A stretch of DNA of 64,000 nt from a virus, in the IMG/VR virus record IMGVR_UViG_3300037258_000125, positions 1 through 64,000 of that record; one strand, given 5' to 3'. Shown piece after piece: positions 21,208 through 54,714 of the stretch. Within the stretch, counting starts at the first letter, position 1. The number at the start of each line of letters is the position of its first letter. The position numbers and the translations under genes are program-made. The notes beneath the pieces are model-generated. The model searched no databases, was not told the DNA's origin, and saw nothing but the letters and a program-made list of their open reading frames with translations.

Positions 21208-21404
21208 ATCATGTTCATCGTCATCATGAGTGCTTGATCTTTAGTGAATCCTTCTTTTTCGAGATCTAGGAAGTATTTGCGTTTGACCCTTGCTATGATT
21301 GTAAAGTACTCTGACATTTCGGTTTCAGTACGCTTAAGCTTTTCAAGCGCAGCTTTGAAATCGTCTTTTGGGTCAAGGGTGACTAGTGTTGGTTTATCAG
21401 TCAT
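21204..21404 (-). CDS. Small helical protein between polA and the macro gene
   Basis: A 66-residue, charged, helical product joined to both neighbours by ATGA overlaps, which supports real translation. It contains KAALEKLKRTETEMSEYFTI and a C-terminal EGFTKDQALMMTMNMI. No family recognised. Confidence 0.7.
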   Translation of the reverse strand: MTDKPTLVTLDPKDDFKAALEKLKRTETEMSEYFTIIARVKRKYFLDLEKEGFTKDQALMMTMNMI

Positions 21405-24400
21405 GCTGCTTGACTCCAGTCATATTTGTGAAGGTCTGTTAGGTTGCCCCAACGTTTGCCGAGCTTAGCGTCACCGATGATTGGGATCTTTCTGATGCCC
21501 CACACCTTCGCTGTCTCAGAGATCCTAGCAGTAGTCTCGGCAGCGATATCTTCGATCAGTGGTTGATCATTAGGCACTTCATACAGGATCGAGTCATACA
21601 CTGTATTGACGATATCCACGTTATGCTTTGCTACACGAGGCTGCATCTGCATTCCAACATGCATCACGATATCGCTGACGATACTCTGCATGAAGAAGTT
21701 ACATGCTTCATTCTGGATATCGTTTAGCCGTTCGAAGCTCACAACACCGAGACGCTTCTTCCGTCCAAAGGATGTTACGAGAGTCTTACCTAGGGTAACG
21801 GACTCACGAATCTTCAATAGGAATTGTCTGGCGCCAGGATATCTTTTGTACCAACCTTCTAAATATACCTGAGCGACTTCAGGTGTGTCATCGATCTGAT
21901 CTGCAAGACCGAATGCAGAGATGCCGTATGGGATACCGAAGTTTACGTTCTTCGCACGCATCTTCTGTTCAGCACGTAATCTTGAAGGATCTGAGAATAC
22001 GTTGAACTTGAGCTCTTGCTTACTCAGGAACTCTGGTGTATAGTCTTTGATCGTCCCAAAGATAGCGTCGCATGTAACATCGTGGACAGACATACCTTTG
22101 GTGGTATAGATCTTAGAAAGGGTTTCATCGCCGCTGAGCTCTGCTAAAATCCTGAGCTCCGCTTGGTTAGCATCCGACTCAAGATAGAGCTTCCCATCTC
22201 TGGCTTTGAACTGACCCTTGAGCTTTGGATCACGAGGGATATTGAGGAGGTTGGGGTCTTCTGATGCGAGGCGCCCAGTACCTGTTCCATGTATCTTGTA
22301 GGTAGTATGGACTCCCCCGTCTGTATTGATCCAACCTGTAACGTGTTTGCCTTTGGAGTCTTCGTGGTCGAGTGCCGGAACAACATATGTCGAACGCGCC
22401 TTTTGAACCTTGCGATTCTTCCGTAGTGCGATGACAACTGGATTTGTCGCAGGTAACTTTTCCAAGGTTTTGACATCTGTGCTCGTTGGCCTCTTCCCTT
22501 TGATCGTCAGCTTCATTACGTCATACAGTAGAGTCGAGAGCTGGGCGGGAGAGTTCGCATTGATCTCTGTATGCCCATATTCCAGGCTATACTTATTGAT
22601 CTCTCCGGTATACTTTGTAATCTCAGCCTGGAGAGTCTTATCATTCTCTTGCACTTGAGCAACATCGAGCTCCATACCCTTCATCTCAATCTTAGTCAGG
22701 TAGGCTGACATCGGTATGAGTGTCTTAGTATAGAGCTTTTCGCTGTGCGGATCAGATTTGACTGAGTTGCGAATGTGCGGGAAGACTTGTTTCGTAGCAG
22801 AAATATCTCTACCGGTATAGTCATAAAGAACTGGTAATGGAATATCAGCATAGGTAATATTGTACCCCTTTGGGTACTTTGATGGATCAAGATAAGGCTT
22901 GATCATATATTTCCAATCAGGGGCTCCTAAATAGTCGGAAGCTACTGATTCAAGGTCGTGGATCCCTTTGGTTGTGTCTAAGCAGTTATGAGACTTATAT
23001 CCTTCGGCTATGAGTGTCCTTGTTTCAGTCTCGATCCCAATAACTTCTCCCATTCCAAGAAATTCGGCCGAAACGATTTTAACGGGCGTACATTTTCTAT
23101 TACCTCTCCAAACACGTTCAGCTTTCTCTAACAGTCTTACAGGTCTAAATGTTCCAAGGGCTCGAAGGCCTTCTTTATATCCTCGGAAACTAACTTTAGC
23201 GGAGCTTTTATAGGGGTACTTGTAATAGTTGGTGTCAAATCCCTTTAGCTTAAGATATTCGAGGGTTTGGTCAAGTACCTTTCCTGGGTTCTGTGCAAAA
23301 CTAAGATCCCAATTGGAATCACCATTTTCTCCTGTCCAACCCGAATTAAGAGTGCCTTCTCCATCAAGAATTCCAGATATGTACCCTCCGATACGAGTAT
23401 CGTCGACTTCCCAAGGAGCGGCAAAGAAGAAGAGTTCAGCTTGTTTTCCGCTCATAACAAGCTGCGCAAGCTTTTCCGTTGTAATCCATCGTGCCCATCT
23501 CTGTCCATAAATTCGTGCAGCCCACATATGTCTGTCGCTACTAATTACTTCACCCTTCTCAGTGGAAAGTTTATACCTGGGGGCAAGTAGCCGTTTTAGA
23601 GCTAGAACTTTCGATGGCTTAAAGTTACCTCCTGGCGGTTTACCGTTAGCCCATCTCGAAGAGGTTCCCTGGTTCCCATCAACAGCATCTTTCTTATACT
23701 CATCAAATCCAATAAGTTGATCCCCAATGTTCACTTCAGCGATTCGTGTCCAGGTAAGATCAGTCTTTAGAACGCGTGTTTCCGGTGAAAGACAGTAGGA
23801 CATGAGCATTGTGTCTTCGTCGACGCGGACATTATCCACTCCGGCTTGAATGAAGAACTTTGCGTCAAACTTACCGTTATGCCACACAAAACGACAGCGA
23901 GAGTCAAATAGACTACGAGTCGCGCGTGTAAGCTCAGACGGAACGATATAAACAAGAGCTGGATCAACGCAGAACCCAGAGCACAGAATATGATCGCGAA
24001 GAAAATCAAACCCGGAAAATCCACCAGTCTCTGTATCAGCGGCTGCGACAACATCTGGATCATCCCATTGTTTGGCGAGGTTGAGGATCTCTTCTTCGCT
24101 GGATATGACTTTGAACTTGGGGACAATGTATTGGCGATAGTCCCTAAGACCCTTCGCAAGTTGGCATGCATAATCCACATCAGCCATAAACTGCGATAGG
24201 CTACCAAAGCCTCGCATAAGGTATGAAGGATGAACTGCAGCAACAATACCTCTGGCTGCGATATCAGACGGAAAGACTTGCCCCCGTACTTGTGTAATTT
24301 TGAGCCCAAAGTTGTTGGTCACACTCCATAGAGCACCAGCACCCAGAGCTAGTATGATCTGATGCGGATGTTGTCGGAGCTCTGCTAGTAGTCGAGGTTG

Positions 24401-24679
24401 ACAGCATCCAACAGCCGTGGCAAGCTTATCAGCGTCCTTTGATTTGGAGGTCCCAGGAAAGCATTGATGGCTGTTCGTGATATACGGATTGAGATCTGGA
24501 TGCTGGGCTAATGCTGCTTTAAGGAGTTCGCCAGAAGGTCCTACGAATGGGAGCTCTTCTCGGATCTCATTCTTTCCTGGGCTTTCACCAACAATGACGA
24601 GCGGGCTCATAGGATCTCCTCGGGAACCTACAAGCTTCCCAAGTGGATAAGTACAATGCTGACAACGAACCAAGCTCAT
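21401..24679 (-). CDS. polA: DNA polymerase I with N-terminal uracil-DNA-glycosylase-like domain and intein
   Basis: The 1092-residue precursor has four parts. Residues 1-180 resemble family 4/5 uracil-DNA glycosylase (CQHC, VIVGESPGKNE, LPFVGPSGELL, AAVHPSYLMR). Residues 205-295 and 566-650 form a DEDDy 3'-5' exonuclease: DTETGG (ExoI), WHNGKFDAKFF (ExoII), YTGRDISATKQ (ExoIII). Residues 296-565 are an intein. The rest is a family A polymerase: motif A DANQAELRILAELSGD, motif B RAKNVNFGIPYGISAFGLA, motif C VYDSILYEV. Motif C has YDS where HDE is usual; the catalytic Asp is kept. After splicing the enzyme is about 822 residues. It is the phage replicative polymerase. Coupled downstream by ATGA. 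Confidence 0.93.
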   Translation of the reverse strand: MSLVRCQHCTYPLGKLVGSRGDPMSPLVIVGESPGKNEIREELPFVGPSGELLKAALAQHPDLNPYITNSHQCFPGTSKSKDADKLATAVGCCQPRLLAELRQHPHQIILALGAGALWSVTNNFGLKITQVRGQVFPSDIAARGIVAAVHPSYLMRGFGSLSQFMADVDYACQLAKGLRDYRQYIVPKFKVISSEEEILNLAKQWDDPDVVAAADTETGGFSGFDFLRDHILCSGFCVDPALVYIVPSELTRATRSLFDSRCRFVWHNGKFDAKFFIQAGVDNVRVDEDTMLMSYCLSPETRVLKTDLTWTRIAEVNIGDQLIGFDEYKKDAVDGNQGTSSRWANGKPPGGNFKPSKVLALKRLLAPRYKLSTEKGEVISSDRHMWAARIYGQRWARWITTEKLAQLVMSGKQAELFFFAAPWEVDDTRIGGYISGILDGEGTLNSGWTGENGDSNWDLSFAQNPGKVLDQTLEYLKLKGFDTNYYKYPYKSSAKVSFRGYKEGLRALGTFRPVRLLEKAERVWRGNRKCTPVKIVSAEFLGMGEVIGIETETRTLIAEGYKSHNCLDTTKGIHDLESVASDYLGAPDWKYMIKPYLDPSKYPKGYNITYADIPLPVLYDYTGRDISATKQVFPHIRNSVKSDPHSEKLYTKTLIPMSAYLTKIEMKGMELDVAQVQENDKTLQAEITKYTGEINKYSLEYGHTEINANSPAQLSTLLYDVMKLTIKGKRPTSTDVKTLEKLPATNPVVIALRKNRKVQKARSTYVVPALDHEDSKGKHVTGWINTDGGVHTTYKIHGTGTGRLASEDPNLLNIPRDPKLKGQFKARDGKLYLESDANQAELRILAELSGDETLSKIYTTKGMSVHDVTCDAIFGTIKDYTPEFLSKQELKFNVFSDPSRLRAEQKMRAKNVNFGIPYGISAFGLADQIDDTPEVAQVYLEGWYKRYPGARQFLLKIRESVTLGKTLVTSFGRKKRLGVVSFERLNDIQNEACNFFMQSIVSDIVMHVGMQMQPRVAKHNVDIVNTVYDSILYEVPNDQPLIEDIAAETTARISETAKVWGIRKIPIIGDAKLGKRWGNLTDLHKYDWSQAA
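22985..23794 (-). other. Intein with single LAGLIDADG motif inside PolA exonuclease domain
   Basis: Codons 296-565 of polA encode a self-splicing protein insert. It starts with Cys (CLSPETRVL, block A), has a block-B-like ISSDRHMWAA with His, a LAGLIDADG-type helix (YISGILDGEGTL), and ends VIGIETETRTLIAEGYKSHN followed by Cys+1. Penultimate His and terminal Asn match class 1 inteins. Joined exteins read DEDTMLMSY-CLDTTKGIHD, the normal ExoII-ExoIII linker. The 270-residue size leaves room for a small homing endonuclease. Confidence 0.93.
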
Positions 24680-25897: not shown

Positions 25898-26677
25898 TTA
25901 GACGCCTTGTTTGTTGCCCCAGACGAGGACGTGCATCTGTGGAAGGAATTTGACATTGCAGAGATACTGATGCCTCATGACATCTCTTAAGAGATGATCA
26001 TAGCGATCCATAAGTAATGTTCTGAGATGGGATCTCGAGACGTTCTGATCCTTACCAGGAGGCATAGGATTACCTAGTGATAGGAAGAACTGTGACTCGC
26101 GAAGATCCTTACGAACAAGAACGTAGCGTTCGTATAGGAGTGAAGCGAATTCAAGGTCGCGCTCGTCAAAGATCACGACCTTCATGGACATCCGTATCTT
26201 AGGTCCAGAGTCCATGAAGAAGTCGAGCTTCTCTTGATCGTAGCGTTCACCCATTCCCGGACCCTTAGGTGATACTACGACGTGGGAACATCCAAAGAGC
26301 CAGTCAGGAACGAAGGTGCCCTGCGTCTCAACTTGGATATTGATCCCCTGACGTAAGAGTTCACCAACGAGTTCCCTCAGATCATGGATGCATGGGTTAC
26401 CTCCAGAGAACGTAACCCAGTTCGTTGTGTGTTCTCCCTGAGCCTTGCGGTACTTGAGGAACTCTTCTGCAATCTGGGTTTGTGTCCACCAGGACGCATT
26501 CCTTGAAACTTTCTCCGGATCAACAGCATGCATAGAGTCACACATCTTGCACTTGTAATCGCAGAGACCGAACCGAATGAAATAGGTCTGGAGACCTATA
26601 ACAGCTCCCTCTCCTTGGACTGTGGGGCCGAAGACCTCCATCACTGGGATCTTCTTTACACTCGGTTGGTCGTTCAT
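25898..26677 (-). CDS. queE: 7-carboxy-7-deazaguanine synthase
   Basis: QueE is a radical-SAM enzyme that turns 6-carboxy-tetrahydropterin into 7-carboxy-7-deazaguanine. The 259-residue product shows EVFGPTVQGEGAVIG at the N-terminus, the Cys motif LCDYKCKMCDS (CX3CX2C) that holds the 4Fe-4S cluster, WVTFSGGNPCIH with the SAM-binding GG motif, and VETQGTFVPDW. Residues 150-165 (VVSPKGPGMGE) match the substrate region. Its start overlaps the upstream HTH gene (ATGA). Confidence 0.93.
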   Translation of the reverse strand: MNDQPSVKKIPVMEVFGPTVQGEGAVIGLQTYFIRFGLCDYKCKMCDSMHAVDPEKVSRNASWWTQTQIAEEFLKYRKAQGEHTTNWVTFSGGNPCIHDLRELVGELLRQGINIQVETQGTFVPDWLFGCSHVVVSPKGPGMGERYDQEKLDFFMDSGPKIRMSMKVVIFDERDLEFASLLYERYVLVRKDLRESQFFLSLGNPMPPGKDQNVSRSHLRTLLMDRYDHLLRDVMRHQYLCNVKFLPQMHVLVWGNKQGV

Positions 26678-26892
26678 TTGGCCCCCTTCTGCCTTGATGT
26701 GGTATCAATGTTACGTTGCTTTGCGAATTCCCTGATCTGGGGATCGGAGATCCTGAACCGCTCTCGAATCTCTCTATACGATATTTCCTTGTGGTTACGC
26801 AACAAGCTCTCGAGCGTAGTCTTCTGACGTTCAGTCAGACCTACGAGTCCACTCTTGGCTCTGGTGGATAAATGGTTAGGATTCGAAACCAC
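26674..26892 (-). CDS. Small helix-turn-helix protein between queD and queE
   Basis: The 72-residue product starts at GTG 26892, overlapping the queD stop (TAGTG), and ends in ATGA with queE. The part LTERQKTTLESLLRNHKEIS then YREIRERFRISDPQIREFAK reads as a helix-turn-helix of the sigma70-region-4 or Trp-repressor style. It could regulate this operon, but the target is unknown. Confidence 0.65.
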   Translation of the reverse strand: MVSNPNHLSTRAKSGLVGLTERQKTTLESLLRNHKEISYREIRERFRISDPQIREFAKQRNIDTTSRQKGAK

Positions 26893-27359
26893 TATCTCGG
26901 TCTCCGAGCGATTGCAGAGTTACCTCCGTGTTCAGAGACCTCCACTTCAAGGATGTAAGCCTGCGTATTGTATTCCCGATTGTAGAGTTCCATGTAACGC
27001 TCTACCTGATCGAGTACCATCCAAGCAAACGCTTCAGTCCCGACATTTTCGACTTCGATTACGTCTGCTATGCCAGTAATGTGCATAGCACGTATATCGG
27101 GAAATTTCGGGTCGTCCCTGGCAACGAGGAGCTTGTGATCGAAAGTCGCATCAAGCCATTTCTTTACTGGCTTGAGCCCTCCGAAGTCAACAACCCAACC
27201 ACGTTTGTCAAGATGGCTCGAACCGAATGTGAGCTTGAACTGGAGAGCATACCCATGCAAGAATTTGCAGTGAGAATCTGCCTTCCATTGCCTAAAGCAA
27301 ACACTATACCCAAGTGAATGGGTATAGGTCTTTGTCGAGAGGAATTCAACCCCCTTCAT
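26892..27359 (-). CDS. queD: 6-carboxy-tetrahydropterin synthase, QueD-like
   Basis: QueD converts dihydroneopterin triphosphate, the FolE product, to 6-carboxy-tetrahydropterin. ATG 27359 follows GGAGAATGATC, so I use it (155 residues); ATG 27389 would add ten. FRQWKADSHCKFLHGYAL holds the catalytic Cys and the first zinc His residues; the canonical HGH is HGY here. GWVVDFGGLKPVKKW, TFDHKLLV and the late ENVGTEAFAWMVLDQV segment fit the family. It sits between queC and the small HTH gene. Confidence 0.88.
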   Translation of the reverse strand: MKGVEFLSTKTYTHSLGYSVCFRQWKADSHCKFLHGYALQFKLTFGSSHLDKRGWVVDFGGLKPVKKWLDATFDHKLLVARDDPKFPDIRAMHITGIADVIEVENVGTEAFAWMVLDQVERYMELYNREYNTQAYILEVEVSEHGGNSAIARRPR

Positions 27360-27395
27360 GATCATTCTCCATTCTGCCGTGACAGGCATTGCTTC

Positions 27396-28241
27396 TTATG
27401 CTGCGTAACGTGTGGGATCATTGACGCCGGCCTTCACGAAAGCTGAACGACGTGAACGGCATGTGGGACATGTACCACAGTGGTTATCACCACCAGCGTA
27501 GCATGACCAAGTATTCTTCCAATCCACGTTGAGCTTCTCACCAAGCGTAACGATCTCGTCCTTCATCAACCACTGGAGGGGAGTGTAAAGACGGATTGCG
27601 TAATACGATCCTGTATAGATCGCATTCGCTTGGGCGCCGATGAACTCTGGTGTGCAATCTGGATAAGCCCAGTTTGCTGCATCTTCAGAGTGTGCGCCGA
27701 AATAGATCCCAACAGAATCCCTCATCATGTTGGTCGCAGATTGAGTTGTTTCACCCGCATGTTCGACGTATCCCGTAATCTGATTATTCACCCATTTCTG
27801 GGCGTGAGCTGTGATCAGAGAGAGGAGAGTACCATTGCGATATGGTACGTACGTTGGTGACACACCTTTGATGTCAGCGTAATCAATGTTTGGGATCGGG
27901 ACGCTCGCGTCAGCAAGCATCACACCTTTCCCAGAGAGGAGACCTTGGATATTCAGGACCTTGTGATCGATTCCGAACTTCTCACAGGTCTCAGCAGCGT
28001 ACTGCGATTCCTTGATGTGCCGTTGACCATAGTCAACAGAGATCGCTTCGACCCAGTCGATACCACCAGTCTCATTCAGGTTGATCCACTGATTGCGTTC
28101 GGTATCCAAACGCATCACCCCATCATGTCTGATCTCGAGTTCATCTTTGGGGCATGGAGCGAATTCCATGATTGCTTTGTGAAGGCAGGTTGTAGAATCC
28201 ATGCCACCGCTCAAGAGGACGAATGCTTTCTTAGCTGTCAT
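27396..28241 (-). CDS. queC: 7-cyano-7-deazaguanine (preQ0) synthase
   Basis: QueC uses ATP and ammonia to make preQ0 from 7-carboxy-7-deazaguanine. From ATG 28241 the product is 281 residues. The PP-loop SGGMDSTTCL lies near residue 10, SVDYGQRHIKE and YVPYRNGTLLSL follow, and the zinc site is CYAGGDNHCGTCPTCRSR. There is no fused glutamine amidotransferase domain, unlike phage 9g-type Gat-QueC, so preQ0 should be the end product. The start lies one base past the stop of the upstream HTH gene. Confidence 0.95.
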   Translation of the reverse strand: MTAKKAFVLLSGGMDSTTCLHKAIMEFAPCPKDELEIRHDGVMRLDTERNQWINLNETGGIDWVEAISVDYGQRHIKESQYAAETCEKFGIDHKVLNIQGLLSGKGVMLADASVPIPNIDYADIKGVSPTYVPYRNGTLLSLITAHAQKWVNNQITGYVEHAGETTQSATNMMRDSVGIYFGAHSEDAANWAYPDCTPEFIGAQANAIYTGSYYAIRLYTPLQWLMKDEIVTLGEKLNVDWKNTWSCYAGGDNHCGTCPTCRSRRSAFVKAGVNDPTRYAA

Positions 28242-28242
28242 G

Positions 28243-28521
28243 TCATATCTCGCTGGTTTTGAGTTGATGATCACCTGATGGATCTTCTGGAGGTCTTGTC
28301 CCCTTTTGGAGAATGTAGTCGACCTCTTCCTTATAAATCCTGTACTGTCCCCCGACTTTGACAGCTATCACTCGCTTCTCGGCAACGTACTTACGAACTG
28401 TGCGATAATCCAACTCGAGCACTTCCGCGAGTTGGGCAATAGAAATCCATCCCCGACCACGGGGAGTGGGAGTCGTCGACGGAGTATCACCCCCGTCGAC
28501 GTTATTGTCTTCCGATGTCAC
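28243..28521 (-). CDS. Excisionase/MerR-like helix-turn-helix protein
   Basis: The 92-residue product (GTG start, AAGG upstream) has a disordered acidic N-terminus, then a winged-HTH unit: WISIAQLAEVLELDYRTVRKYVAEK, split by the turn at residues about 45-50, and KVGGQYRIYKEEVDYIL. This is the HTH_17 type found in excisionases and phage regulators. Located directly before queC, it may control the modification operon or bend DNA in replication. Confidence 0.8.
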   Translation of the reverse strand: MTSEDNNVDGGDTPSTTPTPRGRGWISIAQLAEVLELDYRTVRKYVAEKRVIAVKVGGQYRIYKEEVDYILQKGTRPPEDPSGDHQLKTSEI

Positions 28522-36214: not shown

Positions 36215-36377
36215 GAGGTTTACCCCATTTAGAATCGGGATCATATTCTGGTTCAGGTGTGATATCGATTGGCTGTGACTTCAATTGAGCAGCCAACATC
36301 ATAGCTCTACCCTGAATTCGGGGAGCTACGGAGGGATTCGTTGCAATGTGCATAAGTAGTTCTAGGATAGTATCCAC
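36204..36377 (-). CDS. 57-residue protein, unknown
   Basis: GTG 36377 overlaps the upstream stop (TAGTG) and the frame runs to TGA at 36204-36206. The N-terminal half is helical (DTILELLMHIATNPSVAP, then RAMMLAAQLKS) and the end is Pro/Asp-rich (DITPEPEYDPDSKW). It slightly overlaps the ParB-like start. No family recognised. Confidence 0.6.
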   Translation of the reverse strand: MDTILELLMHIATNPSVAPRIQGRAMMLAAQLKSQPIDITPEPEYDPDSKWGKPHGN

Positions 36378-36826
36378 TACTTGATCACCTCATGATTTAC
36401 AGGTGTAAGTATCCCACCTCTAACAAGTGCAAGTATGTAATTGTCAATTCGACACTTCTCAATACGTTGCTGTGCAACTGCATGAGGTCCGAGTGTTTGA
36501 GCTGTGACAAGATCATTGTATCGAACTTCGAGCCTTGCAAGTTTGACTCGAGTTGATTGTCCCATCATGGACACACGAAACTTTTGCCAAGACTCTGCAT
36601 CGATTGCGTTATATACACAATCCTTGATGAATCCGATATCCCATGAATCGATACCGTACTCCCAACACCTTATGAGACTTGCACGTTTGCGCAGAGCAAT
36701 ATCTTCATCTTCGTCCTTACGACGAAGATGAGCGAATTTACGTGCGTACTCTTTGAAAGGTTTGATCGCCACTTGGAGTCCTGATCGTCTTGTAGAAGTC
36801 GTGCAGTACGCAGAAATCAGCTGCAC
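36377..36826 (-). CDS. Helical protein, first gene after the structured leader
   Basis: The frame opens at GTG 36826 (149 residues), but GTG 36772 has a better ribosome site (CAGGACTCCAA) and would give 131 residues. Mostly helical and charged: PFKEYARKFAHLRRKDEDED, WEYGIDSWDIGFIKDCVYNA, RVKLARLEVRYNDLVTAQTL. It is the first cistron of an operon whose long leader RNA (36838-37013) can fold extensively. Function unknown. Confidence 0.7.
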   Translation of the reverse strand: MQLISAYCTTSTRRSGLQVAIKPFKEYARKFAHLRRKDEDEDIALRKRASLIRCWEYGIDSWDIGFIKDCVYNAIDAESWQKFRVSMMGQSTRVKLARLEVRYNDLVTAQTLGPHAVAQQRIEKCRIDNYILALVRGGILTPVNHEVIK

Positions 36827-36837
36827 TTCTTCGTCGT

Positions 36838-37013
36838 AATTGGGTTTCGTCTACCCTCGAAACGTTCGAACCGAGTCGCTTTGCTCTTTCGCTGTCATTC
36901 GGCCTGTGTTTACCAGAGGCACCTAGGTGCGAGGTTTCAGAGTCGCCGAACAGACTAAAGAGGTTCGCTCGTGTAACAGATCCGAGAGTAGACGAAACCC
37001 AATCTTTCGATTG
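36838..37013 (-). ncRNA. Candidate long nested-hairpin leader RNA
   Basis: Reading leftward from the promoter, the leader opens with CAATC-GAAA-GATTG, then a 20-base arm at 36984-37003 pairs with 36839-36858 (19 of 20 positions). Inside lie further nested complementary blocks in matching order: ACG/CGT, CGAACC/GGTTCG, TCTTT/AAAGA, CTGT/ACAG and TCGGC/GCCGA, with GCAC-CTAG-GTGC at the tip. The last bases of the long stem compete with the GAAA hairpin. There is no open frame of note. It may be a regulatory leader, a stable small RNA or a new structured RNA class. Confidence 0.6.
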
Positions 37014-37020
37014 TACCTAA

Positions 37021-37050
37021 ATTATAACACAAAGCTTAGATGGTCATCAA
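37021..37050 (-). promoter_or_regulatory. Leftward promoter upstream of the structured leader
   Basis: -35 TTGATG (37045-37050) and -10 TATAAT (37021-37026), 18 bp apart. TTGACCATAATTTGGACTC abuts the -35, the clearest copy of the shared upstream block. Transcription should begin near 37014, at the base of the GAAA-capped hairpin. Confidence 0.85.
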
Positions 37051-37065
37051 GAGTCCAAATTATGG

Positions 37066-37572
37066 TCAAATGGTCTTAGCGTCTTTGTGGAACAATAGCC
37101 AATGTGCTCCGTGTCTAATAGCGTCACGGGCATGAACGAGTCCAGGAAGGTAAAGATCCCAGAGCTTCAACTTAGCATCTGTTGCAAATCCTTTACCGAT
37201 CTGAGCAGTCTGTTCATCGTTTGGGATGTCTCTAAGAATACAATGCGTTCTAAGGCACCCGATGATTTGAATAGTTGGTACGCGAGAGAAAGTATGTTCC
37301 TCCAGCTTCCACTTGTACACATGATAAGCTTCATAGACCACGAAGTTTGGTCTATAGGTATCCATCAAGTCCCTGAATGCAAACACAGCATTCTTTAAGG
37401 GCCATGTTGATTGTTGCCCTGCAAAGATAAGTTGGGCACCCACGATAGTATAATCGTATACAGCAATACCAGTTGTTTCCCCTGGATCTATACATAGAAG
37501 CCTGCCGGAAAAGGCATGACGCTTCTGTGAATGAATTAGTTTGCTAAGCGCGGGGAGTTGCAAGGGGAACAT
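37066..37572 (-). CDS. RuvC-like Holliday junction resolvase
   Basis: The 168-residue product has the RNase H fold of phage RuvC-like nucleases: RLLCIDPGETTGIAVYD with the first catalytic Asp, NFVVYEAYHVYK with the Glu after strand 4, and a C-terminal HARDAIRHGAHWLL with a further Asp. These four acids resolve branched DNA before packaging. It overlaps the upstream gene by 29 bases. Confidence 0.85.
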   Translation of the reverse strand: MFPLQLPALSKLIHSQKRHAFSGRLLCIDPGETTGIAVYDYTIVGAQLIFAGQQSTWPLKNAVFAFRDLMDTYRPNFVVYEAYHVYKWKLEEHTFSRVPTIQIIGCLRTHCILRDIPNDEQTAQIGKGFATDAKLKLWDLYLPGLVHARDAIRHGAHWLLFHKDAKTI

Positions 37573-52380: not shown

Positions 52381-52676
52381 AACTAGGGGAAAGTAGTTTT
52401 TGGTCAATTGAGCTAACTCGTTGATTTTATTAAGGAAAAGTAGTATCATTACTTACTTACTCTTTTTAAGAAATAGTATAAGAAAAAATAAAGGAATAGA
52501 TATAGAATAGTAATAGAATAATAGGAATAGAATAGGAAGATATGTAGGAATATGTAGGAAGATAAAAAATAAAGAATATAGAATCTGTTAAACAAACTAA
52601 GTAAGTAGGGAAAGTACTTTTCTTTAATGATTTCAATAGGTTAACAAGGAAGTGCCGAAACTACTTTCCCCTAGTT
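52381..52676. repeat. AT-rich island bounded by a 19-bp inverted repeat; origin candidate
   Basis: AACTAGGGGAAAGTAGTTT (52381-52399) returns as its exact reverse complement at 52658-52676. Nested inside are TTAAGGAAAAGTA (52430-52442) against TACTTTTCTTTAA (52615-52627, one mismatch) and TTACTTACTT-type words against AAGTAAGTA (near 52450 and 52600). The 150-base core is purine-rich on one strand with many GAATAG words and two ATATGTAGGAA copies. An easily melted core with iteron-like words and flanking dyads fits a replication origin or a large cruciform. Confidence 0.55.
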
Positions 52677-52925
52677 TCTAAAGGAATGTTTGAGGAATGT
52701 TGGCAATTACCTATGGTTTTTAGGTGACCTAATATGTAGGACGATTGATCAGAACGATAGTGTATTGTAGGACTTAACAGAGACCCTTCGGCCCGGACAC
52801 ATCAGTACTATTTAGGAGCAGTCGGATTTTGGTCGGCCAGCTTCAGACGTTTATTGGCAACGGCAACCACCAGTACAACCGCTCCGACTATATGACGGTT
52901 TGGGACATGTCGGACCGGTCCTTAG

Positions 52926-52965
52926 GTGACCAAAAGAACTGGGAGACCCTCTCGAGCCTCCCAGT
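52926..52965 (-). terminator. Terminator downstream of the 53.1 kb gene
   Basis: ACTGGGAG / CTCCCAGT (52938-52945 and 52958-52965) forms an 8-bp stem; leftward it is followed by TCTTTTGG. About 100 bases past the stop of the gene at 53065. Confidence 0.65.
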
Positions 52966-53064
52966 GTTCCTTAGTGCCCTACATGTGCTGCATGTGACAG
53001 TACCTGTATAAGGATAAGGAGCGATAGCGTCCCGAAGAACGCTACCGCAAAGTAGTGGACCGCG

Positions 53065-53334
53065 TTAGACCTGCGCTGCGGTCTTGATCTTCTGGTTCAG
53101 CTGGTTGCGGACGTGCTGATACTTCACCGGTTTGGTGTACAGCGCGTTCTTGCCCACGAGACCGCTGAGGTACTTGGCGATCGGCCCCGTCTTCCAACCG
53201 AGGTTCGCAAGGAACCGCATCGCTTGCGCTTTGGTCGTGTACCCGGCGATCGTCTTTTCCTGAGCCGACGTCAGGGTATTGACCGCGGGAACCACAGCAG
53301 TGGCAACGGCGGCAGTGTTGGTCTTGTCGTTCAT
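53065..53334 (-). CDS. GPIAK/YQHVRN-family protein (paralog 3)
   Basis: The 89-residue product has a Thr/Ala/Val N-terminus, then TKAQAMRFLANLGWKTGPIAK, LSGLVGKNALYTKPVKYQHV and RNQLNQKIK. The blocks match the 37.9, 50.7 and 54.2 kb proteins. GC-rich codons plus its own promoter and terminator suggest abundance. Basic C-terminus and helical core fit a small DNA-binding protein; the origin-like island lies just downstream. Confidence 0.75.
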   Translation of the reverse strand: MNDKTNTAAVATAVVPAVNTLTSAQEKTIAGYTTKAQAMRFLANLGWKTGPIAKYLSGLVGKNALYTKPVKYQHVRNQLNQKIKTAAQV

Positions 53335-53384
53335 GTTGTGATCGTCCTTCTATTAGGTTGAAGTCATTTCAACCTTACAAAACT

Positions 53385-53413
53385 ATAATATCGCATCCTC
53401 TGGGTCAAATCAA
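53385..53413 (-). promoter_or_regulatory. Leftward promoter for paralog 3
   Basis: -35 TTGATT (53408-53413) and -10 TATTAT (53385-53390), 17 bp apart. Upstream are TATAGTCGGCC and, farther, AGCGAATTTTGCTTGGC (53465-53481). Confidence 0.85.
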
Positions 53414-53573
53414 CAACAATCTTATAGTCGGCCTATATGATTTATTGCCTTGGCTACCGAGCCCAGCGAATTTTGCTTGGCTCAGTCCTTTATTGGCAAC
53501 TAGGCCAGCTAGCCTAGGGCTAAATTCCTATGACCGGGCATACCAGTCCAACCGGTCCCCAGGTAAGGGAATA

Positions 53574-53593
53574 GGAGGATCTTTCGATCCTCC
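53574..53593 (-). terminator. Hairpin after the 53.6 kb gene
   Basis: GGAGGATC / GATCCTCC, 8-bp stem; read leftward its loop is GAAA, a stable tetraloop. It lies ten bases past the stop at 53602. No T-run, so it may stabilise or process RNA rather than terminate. Confidence 0.55.
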
Positions 53594-53601
53594 CGTTCCG
53601 C

Positions 53602-53778
53602 TCAGGATTTATCGCGGATCACGTACGTGATCGTTTGTATGAGCGTGAGCATGCGAGCTAGGTACTTTGGTTCCTGTGGATCGTTCTTGATCTCTTCCCT
53701 GTGGAACTCCAGATCCTTCTTCATGGACTCAAGCGTTGGAACCGAGAAAATACAAACCATTTCTTTACTGAGCATCAT
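53602..53778 (-). CDS. Unknown 58-residue protein
   Basis: ATG 53778 follows AAAGGAGAACGATT. Product: LSKEMVCIFSVPTLESMKKD, LEFHREEIKNDPQEPKYLAR, then TLIQTITYVIRDKS. A charged helical protein with its own promoter (53810-53838) and trailing hairpin. No family recognised. Confidence 0.7.
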   Translation of the reverse strand: MMLSKEMVCIFSVPTLESMKKDLEFHREEIKNDPQEPKYLARMLTLIQTITYVIRDKS

Positions 53779-53809
53779 AATCGTTCTCCTTTGTTTACCT
53801 TACCATTTT

Positions 53810-53838
53810 ATAATAGCGCATGTCCTAATATGCCGCAA
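53810..53838 (-). promoter_or_regulatory. Leftward promoter for the 53.6 kb gene
   Basis: -35 TTGCGG (53833-53838) and -10 TATTAT (53810-53815), 17 bp apart. AGCGATTTCGCTTGGC (53862-53877) lies 24 bases upstream. Confidence 0.8.
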
Positions 53839-53906
53839 CTACTAATATCGCTTAGCTGATAAGCGATTTCGCTTGGCCTGGTTAACCGGTCCCTTGTGGT
53901 AAGACT

Positions 53907-53935
53907 ATAGTCCTAGGACCTACGCCTAGGACTAT
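53907..53935. terminator. 11-bp stem hairpin after the 38-residue gene
   Basis: ATAGTCCTAGG / CCTAGGACTAT with a 7-base loop, just past the stop at 53940. It has no T-run on either strand. Equivalent in position to the hairpins at 52938 and 53574, each followed leftward by GGACCGGT. Confidence 0.5.
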
Positions 53936-53939
53936 GAGC

Positions 53940-54056
53940 CTATTGGACTAGCCCAGCTATAACGACGTGGGCTACATAAACCCCGTACGTTATATAGAAC
54001 AGGGATAGTACAGTCACTGCTACACTAACAGTGACAACGATGTCGGTACGTCCCAT
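53940..54056 (-). CDS. 38-residue membrane protein
   Basis: ATG 54056 follows GTTGGAGATCCCCT. After GRTD the product is one long hydrophobic helix (IVVTVSVAVTVLSLFYITYG) and a moderately hydrophobic tail. It sits between two hairpins, downstream of paralog 4. Confidence 0.6.
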   Translation of the reverse strand: MGRTDIVVTVSVAVTVLSLFYITYGVYVAHVVIAGLVQ

Positions 54057-54083
54057 AGGGGATCTCCAACTGTTGAGGGTGGT

Positions 54084-54108
54084 GGGTGGGTCCTAATAAG
54101 ACCCACCC
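54084..54108. terminator. 9-bp hairpin between paralog 4 and the membrane gene
   Basis: GGGTGGGTC / GACCCACCC with loop CTAATAA, ten bases past the stop at 54118. No T-run. Probably an RNA-processing or attenuation element. Confidence 0.45.
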
Positions 54109-54117
54109 TATTGGATG

Positions 54118-54315
54118 TTACTGACCCTTCAGAGGAGTGATCAGTACGTTCCTGACCCACTGGTATTTGATGTTGAGGACCTTAGCGATGGCGCCTCGTT
54201 TGAGACCCTGACCATCCAGGTACCGAATCTTGGCTGACGTAGTAGTGAGCGTGGTCAGGTGGATAGGATCGAAAGCAAGTGGTTCGGTGATGGGTTGTTC
54301 TTTAGTCTTAGACAT
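54118..54315 (-). CDS. GPIAK/YQ-family protein (paralog 4)
   Basis: From ATG 54315 the product is 65 residues: TLTTTSAKIRYLDGQGLKRG, AIAKVLNIKYQWVRNVLITP, LKGQ. The shortest and clearest member of the family, essentially one helix-turn-helix-like unit. It is the first leftward gene, beside the divergent promoter for the packaging genes, so a regulator role is plausible. The ATG 78 bases upstream would overlap the control dyads. Confidence 0.7.
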   Translation of the reverse strand: MSKTKEQPITEPLAFDPIHLTTLTTTSAKIRYLDGQGLKRGAIAKVLNIKYQWVRNVLITPLKGQ

Positions 54316-54714
54316 TTTAGTACCCTTCGTTTTGGTTGGTTGCTTAATTGCTAACCAATGATCATAGTATATAAGGGAATAATATTCCCGCACGTACTAT
54401 TTTAGCTTGACTGATAAGCGAATTTCGATGGGCTCAATCAGATACCGAGTAATTTTCGGACTAGGAATATATTCCTATTCAAAAAGCAACTCAGTATCCC
54501 GCAAAACGTACGGTATTCTATAGGATTTTTGGAGGCCATATTCAGGTGTGATCTCTCCTAACAAACGTACGATATTTTTGCGGAAATTTGAGGGGCCATA
54601 TCCTGAATAGTCAAATATCTTTTGGTCACACCGAAAAAACCCTCTTGACGTCTCATCTGACCTCTGTTATAATTGGAGCACAGTACAACACTGAATCGGA
54701 ATAGGACAGTGATC
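54316..54714. promoter_or_regulatory. Divergent control region between leftward and rightward genes
   Basis: No gene in about 400 bases. It contains GGGAATAATATTCCC (54375-54389), AGCGAATTTCGATGGGC (54417-54433), the 16-base palindrome TAGGAATATATTCCTA (54462-54477), and two imperfect direct repeats (about 54501-54543 and 54561-54604) sharing AAACGTACG-TATT and GGCCATAT. TATTCAGG (54539-54546) and CCTGAATA (54602-54609) are inverted. The leftward promoter here is unclear. The rightward promoter follows at 54645. Confidence 0.7.
54645..54673 (+). promoter_or_regulatory. Rightward promoter for packaging and head genes
   Basis: TTGACG (54645-54650) and TATAAT (54668-54673), 17 bp apart, the best sigma70-type promoter in the window. 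Start of transcription near 54680. TTTTGGTCACACCG lies upstream. Confidence 0.9.

What the first reader, a model, noticed from the sequence alone, without database searches (positions are those of the whole stretch)
36838..37013. Long nested-hairpin RNA between a promoter and its operon
The transcript should start at a GAAA-capped hairpin and then form a 20-base outer stem enclosing five further complementary blocks in perfectly nested order. The end of the outer stem competes with the first hairpin, the arrangement of a switch. It has no coding frame and I recognise no known RNA class. It may regulate the helicase/ATPase operon, be a stable phage small RNA, or interact with host RNA-binding machinery.
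Basis: seen in the sequence. Interest (0 to 1): 0.8.

Follow-up and report, generated by a model that had tools for sequence, protein, structure and literature searches.

The report
Long-stem leader RNA after phage promoter
Between a phage promoter and the gene it drives sits an unusually long leader RNA closed by a 24-pair stem, found so far only in this phage; it is probably a cut or folded leader that tunes gene expression, not a demonstrated switch or a known RNA class.

Summary
A phage promoter (37059-37021) is followed, from about 37014, by a leader of about 245 nt that folds into one long unbranched rod (-73.4 kcal/mol, z -6.3). Only the outer stem (37004-36981 pairing with 36861-36838) is beyond chance; arms of this quality never arose in 200 shuffles of the window. 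The inner "nested blocks" fold no better than shuffled sequence (146 of 500 as good). The 5' GAAA hairpin forms only on nascent RNA and has probability of at most 0.003 in the full leader, so a switch is not supported. The promoter belongs to a family shared by related phages (49 sites on the gene strand, none on the other). In at least six relatives it drives the same downstream gene through a short leader (about 15-60 nt), so the RNA is an addition special to this phage. No homologue was found in Rfam, in IMG/VR (exact stem patterns), in phage and plasmid collections, or by covariance model in 1.33 Mb of related DNA, so covariation cannot be tested. Most likely it is a leader processing or stability stem of the RNase III type; antitermination, a released small RNA and a non-functional duplication remain open.

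The parts
37021..37059 (-). Phage promoter TTTGGACTCTTGATG-N-TGTTATAAT (-35 TTGATG at 37050, 18-nt spacer, TG before the -10, -10 ending at 37021)
   Evidence: consensus shared by 49 sites on the gene strand of relatives, 0 on the opposite strand
37000..37013 (-). 5' terminal hairpin CAAUC-GAAA-GAUUG directly after the predicted start site; forms only on the nascent transcript
36981..37004 (-). 5' arm of the 24-pair outer stem
36862..36980 (-). Inner 119-nt region: weak, interrupted nested pairs ending in the palindrome GCACCUAGGUGC (36930-36919); not beyond chance as a fold
36838..36861 (-). 3' arm of the outer stem
36787..36832 (-). Second, smaller hairpin (GAAG/GUGCAG with CUGCAC/CUUC) between the rod and the RBS
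   Evidence: fold of the whole leader
36377..36772 (-). First gene of the transcript: 131-aa protein of unknown function; start GTG at 36772 with AGGA upstream, chosen by homology (the mechanical ORF starts at 36826)
   Evidence: alignment with L025, L041, L026, L051, L032; AlphaFold model all-alpha, pLDDT 87.5
37066..37572 (-). Upstream gene, RNase H-like protein; synteny anchor in relatives
   Evidence: PHROG 1981 and 5202; relatives

Best explanation
It is the 5' untranslated leader of a phage operon transcript, lengthened in this lineage by about 200 nt that are closed by a 24-pair stem. Shown: the promoter, its conservation, the stem, and the absence of the insert at the same promoter in the relatives found. 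Inferred: the two-turn helix is bound and probably cut by the host's RNase III (or protects the 5' end if uncut), which trims the leader, perhaps releasing the roughly 120-nt lobe, and sets the stability and translation of the downstream mRNA. The GAAA hairpin is a transient fold of the nascent RNA or, after processing, a 5' end cap.
For: Promoter family with 49 sites on the gene strand and none on the other. The same promoter lies a short leader before the same gene in L025/L108, L041/L109, L112, L117/L118, L032/L120, L051/L116, so the extra RNA lies inside a known transcription unit. The target leader has the lowest folding energy of the 49 (-74.6; mean -52.9, sd 9.7) and the greatest distance to a start codon. 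Stem arms are far beyond chance and as long as the helix of about 20 bp that RNase III is known to need (own knowledge). The interior does not fold beyond chance, which fits an element whose closing helix is what counts. The RBS stays outside the rod.
Against: No homologue, hence no covariation or conservation showing selection on the RNA. RNase III cleavage is inferred from helix length only. There are no RNA data. A young inverted duplication without function would look similar.
Confidence: 0.4

Rival explanations
1. Non-functional or young inverted duplication, or the remnant of a small mobile element (MITE-like: 24-nt terminal inverted repeats, 167 bp), inserted between promoter and gene.
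For: Lineage-specific; strong terminal arms with a near-random interior, the anatomy of a MITE.
Against: No second copy in the phage, none in the phage or plasmid collections or, by exact 24-mer, in IMG/VR. No target-site duplication is visible at the ends. The arm begins only a few bases after the predicted transcription start, a coincidence for a random insertion.
Confidence: 0.25
2. Processive antitermination or attenuation leader: the nascent RNA acts on RNA polymerase, as the put RNA of phage HK022 does, and lets it read the long minus-strand gene block.
For: Promoter-proximal position ahead of a long same-strand gene block. Known precedent: HK022 putRNA (PMC9378689, abstract).
Against: Relatives with the same operon order do without it. 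put RNA is about 65 nt with two short stem-loops, not a 167-nt rod (own knowledge). No terminator-like site was found in the leader on this strand.
Confidence: 0.12
3. A stable noncoding phage RNA, released by processing, that acts in trans (for instance as a decoy for a host double-stranded-RNA-binding protein or nuclease).
For: 24-pair helix and very low energy; transcription from a conserved phage promoter.
Against: No terminator of its own; the RNA runs into a gene. No homologue. No evidence of a discrete transcript.
Confidence: 0.12
4. An RNA switch in which the 5' GAAA hairpin and the outer stem exclude each other.
For: GAUUG (37004-37000) is shared by both folds.
Against: Hairpin probability at most 0.003 against at least 0.94 for the stem; only 5 of 24 pairs are contested; neither fold covers the RBS.
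Confidence: 0.04

Closest known systems
RNase III-processed phage leaders (T7 early mRNA sites; lambda N leader)
   Same: Long double helix in the 5' untranslated part of a phage mRNA
   Different: No cleavage shown here; the helix encloses 119 nt; no sequence relationship was seen
HK022 put RNA
   Same: Structured RNA directly after a phage promoter
   Different: put is short with two stem-loops and acts on RNA polymerase; no size match; relatives with the same operon lack the element
rRNA-type processing stems and 23S intervening sequences of alphaproteobacteria
   Same: A long closing stem around a region of little specific structure
   Different: In a phage mRNA leader; excision not shown
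MITE-like elements
   Same: Terminal inverted repeats of about 24 nt and a length of 167 bp
   Different: Single copy, no target-site duplication, no parent transposon found

Membership tests
Any Rfam family | Covariance model match at or near the gathering score | tested here: not met
   0 matches in the window; the permissive search of the region gives only a chance miRNA hit at 16.6 bits, gathering 41
RNase III-processed leader | Double helix of about 20 bp or more in the untranslated leader | tested here: met
   24 consecutive pairs
RNase III-processed leader | Cleavage by RNase III | not testable with these tools
   needs RNA from infected cells or purified enzyme
Riboswitch / RNA switch | Two mutually exclusive folds of comparable stability that expose or hide a control site | tested here: not met
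   5' hairpin at most 0.003, outer stem at least 0.94; RBS outside both
Riboswitch / RNA switch | Conserved, covarying aptamer in homologues | tested here: inconclusive
   no homologue in 1.33 Mb of relatives or in IMG/VR by exact pattern
MITE / insertion element | Several copies and a target-site duplication | tested here: not met
   single copy, no flanking direct repeat
put-type antiterminator RNA | Suppression of termination | not testable with these tools
   reporter assay needed

The most novel reading that the evidence does not exclude
A phage-specific noncoding RNA of about 120-170 nt, cut out of the operon leader by a host double-strand nuclease, acts in trans as a decoy or regulator during infection.
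Probability: 0.1. Interest if true: 0.6.

Novelty: new member of a known kind. Interest (0 to 1): 0.32.

Why it matters
It gives a clean, testable case of a long structured leader gained by one phage at a promoter whose position and sequence are conserved across its group. The work also defines the promoter family of this group of phages related to the Brevundimonas siphoviruses MaInes and StAshley. If the RNA proved to be excised or to act in trans it would be of wider interest; as it stands it is one unconserved leader.

Tried and rejected
Rfam, normal and permissive: nothing. tRNA/tmRNA: none. DNA similarity in phages and plasmids: none. Stem-arm 16-mer in IMG/VR: 17 hits, none with a complementary arm nearby, taken as chance; 24-mer: 0. 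Single-protein searches in IMG/VR found nothing; the alignment-based search gave 80 loci. Genome collection: 3 distant, uninformative loci. Covariance model from the single sequence: only itself and its own opposite strand. Strong folds near the same gene in L111, L114 and L124 lie mostly within high-GC coding sequence and share nothing with the target. Long hairpins at other places in relatives (L043, L044, L047, L049, L027) are at other positions and gave no covariance-model match to the target. Fold search of the downstream protein: no match in PDB or BFVD, so its function gives no hint. Attenuation through the 15-codon frame at 36898 was considered and not pursued: weak Shine-Dalgarno, no homologue.

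Full report
What is there. The window is part of a 68,067-base virus record, a tailed phage whose nearest named relatives are the Brevundimonas siphoviruses MaInes and StAshley (44-46% identical primase). Genes around the finding run on the minus strand. Read on that strand, a phage promoter at 37059-37021 (TTTGGACTCTTGATG, then TGTTATAAT, 18-nt spacer) is followed within a few bases by CAATC-GAAA-GATTG (37013-37000) and then by arms 37004-36981 and 36861-36838 that form 24 consecutive pairs. The predicted fold is one unbranched rod, -73.4 kcal/mol, z -6.3. A smaller hairpin and the ribosome-binding site follow.

How much is beyond chance. Arms of this quality with at least 40 nt between them were not seen in 200 dinucleotide shuffles of the window (best shuffled score 15, target 18). 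The interior is different: once the outer stem is removed, the 119-nt interior folds at -32.2 against -30.6 +/- 3.4 kcal/mol for shuffles, 146 of 500 as good, and the complementarity of its two halves is only 94/2000 once the apex palindrome is left out.

The promoter is real and conserved. The search with the primase alignment gave about 30 related contigs, most with the same gene order. The promoter consensus (TTTG-N-CTTG-N-TATAAT) occurs 49 times on the gene strand of these contigs and of the window, and never on the other strand. Four copies in the window are shown. In L025, L041, L112, L117/L118, L032 and L051 a promoter of this kind precedes a homologue of the same downstream gene by a short leader, and in several others it follows the same RNase H-like gene. 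Homology also sets the likely start of the downstream gene at GTG 36772 instead of 36826, so the leader here is about 245 nt. Among the 49 leaders the target has the lowest folding energy (-74.6; mean -52.9, sd 9.7) and the greatest distance to a start codon. In MaInes the corresponding promoters also have short leaders and no such inverted repeat was found in the whole genome.

No homologue of the RNA. Rfam, phage and plasmid collections, exact patterns in IMG/VR and a covariance model over 77 sources, 1.33 Mb found none. Covariation, the natural test, therefore cannot be made. Records very close to the window may be hidden from the tools, and the nearest relative found has only 53% primase identity, so absence in true siblings is not shown.

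Is it a switch? GAUUG is shared by the 5' hairpin and the outer stem, but only 5 of 24 pairs are contested. On growing transcripts the hairpin is present up to about 170 nt and is replaced as soon as the 3' arm is complete; in the whole leader its pairs have probability at most 0.003. Neither fold covers the ribosome-binding site. A switch is not supported by these numbers.

Most likely function (inference). A leader stem of two helical turns in a bacterium is a natural substrate for RNase III. I think it most likely that the stem is cut or bound there and sets the stability or translation of the mRNA of the first gene, a 131-aa all-helical protein of unknown function, and of the genes behind it, which include a SNF2-type helicase and a PD-(D/E)XK nuclease. 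Rivals are a non-functional inverted duplication or mobile remnant, an antiterminator leader, and a released trans-acting RNA. None is excluded. The strong-arms/weak-interior anatomy fits both the processing-stem and the remnant readings, which is why the first gets only 0.4.

Noticed in passing
window 52381-52676, with L052 1-320, L028 2089-2335, L032 358-628, L036 1369-1688; long hairpins also at L023 2960-3230, L027 3800-4100: A second, larger inverted repeat in noncoding DNA recurs in this phage group: a convergent pair of the motif AACYYRTTGAAATCATTA about 200-300 bp apart. In the five genomes compared each arm matches the motif better than it matches its partner (arms were picked by the motif, so this is biased), which suggests paired protein-binding sites, perhaps a replication origin; not found in MaInes.
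   Followed up: partly
window 20825-20784, 37059-37021, 48859-48820, 52249-52210 (minus strand): Four copies of an extended phage promoter ACCATMATTTGGACTCTTG-N-TATAAT; the same family is found in related contigs.
   Followed up: yes
window 52700-54700 (minus strand): Several long noncoding stretches with similar pieces (GGACCGGTT..., GCCAATAAA...) and strong folds lie around small ORFs (54118-54393, 53065-53334) whose products hit the same places in relatives.
   Followed up: no
window 21401-24679: One ORF joins an N-terminal uracil-DNA-glycosylase domain to a family A DNA polymerase.
   Followed up: no
window 25898-28274: QueC, a 6-pyruvoyl-tetrahydropterin-synthase-type (QueD-like) protein and a radical-SAM protein, a set for 7-deazaguanine as also annotated in MaInes, suggesting modified phage DNA.
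   Followed up: no
window 36377-36772: The downstream protein belongs to a small unnamed family of this phage group, all-alpha model at pLDDT 87.5, with no Pfam, PDB or BFVD match.
   Followed up: partly
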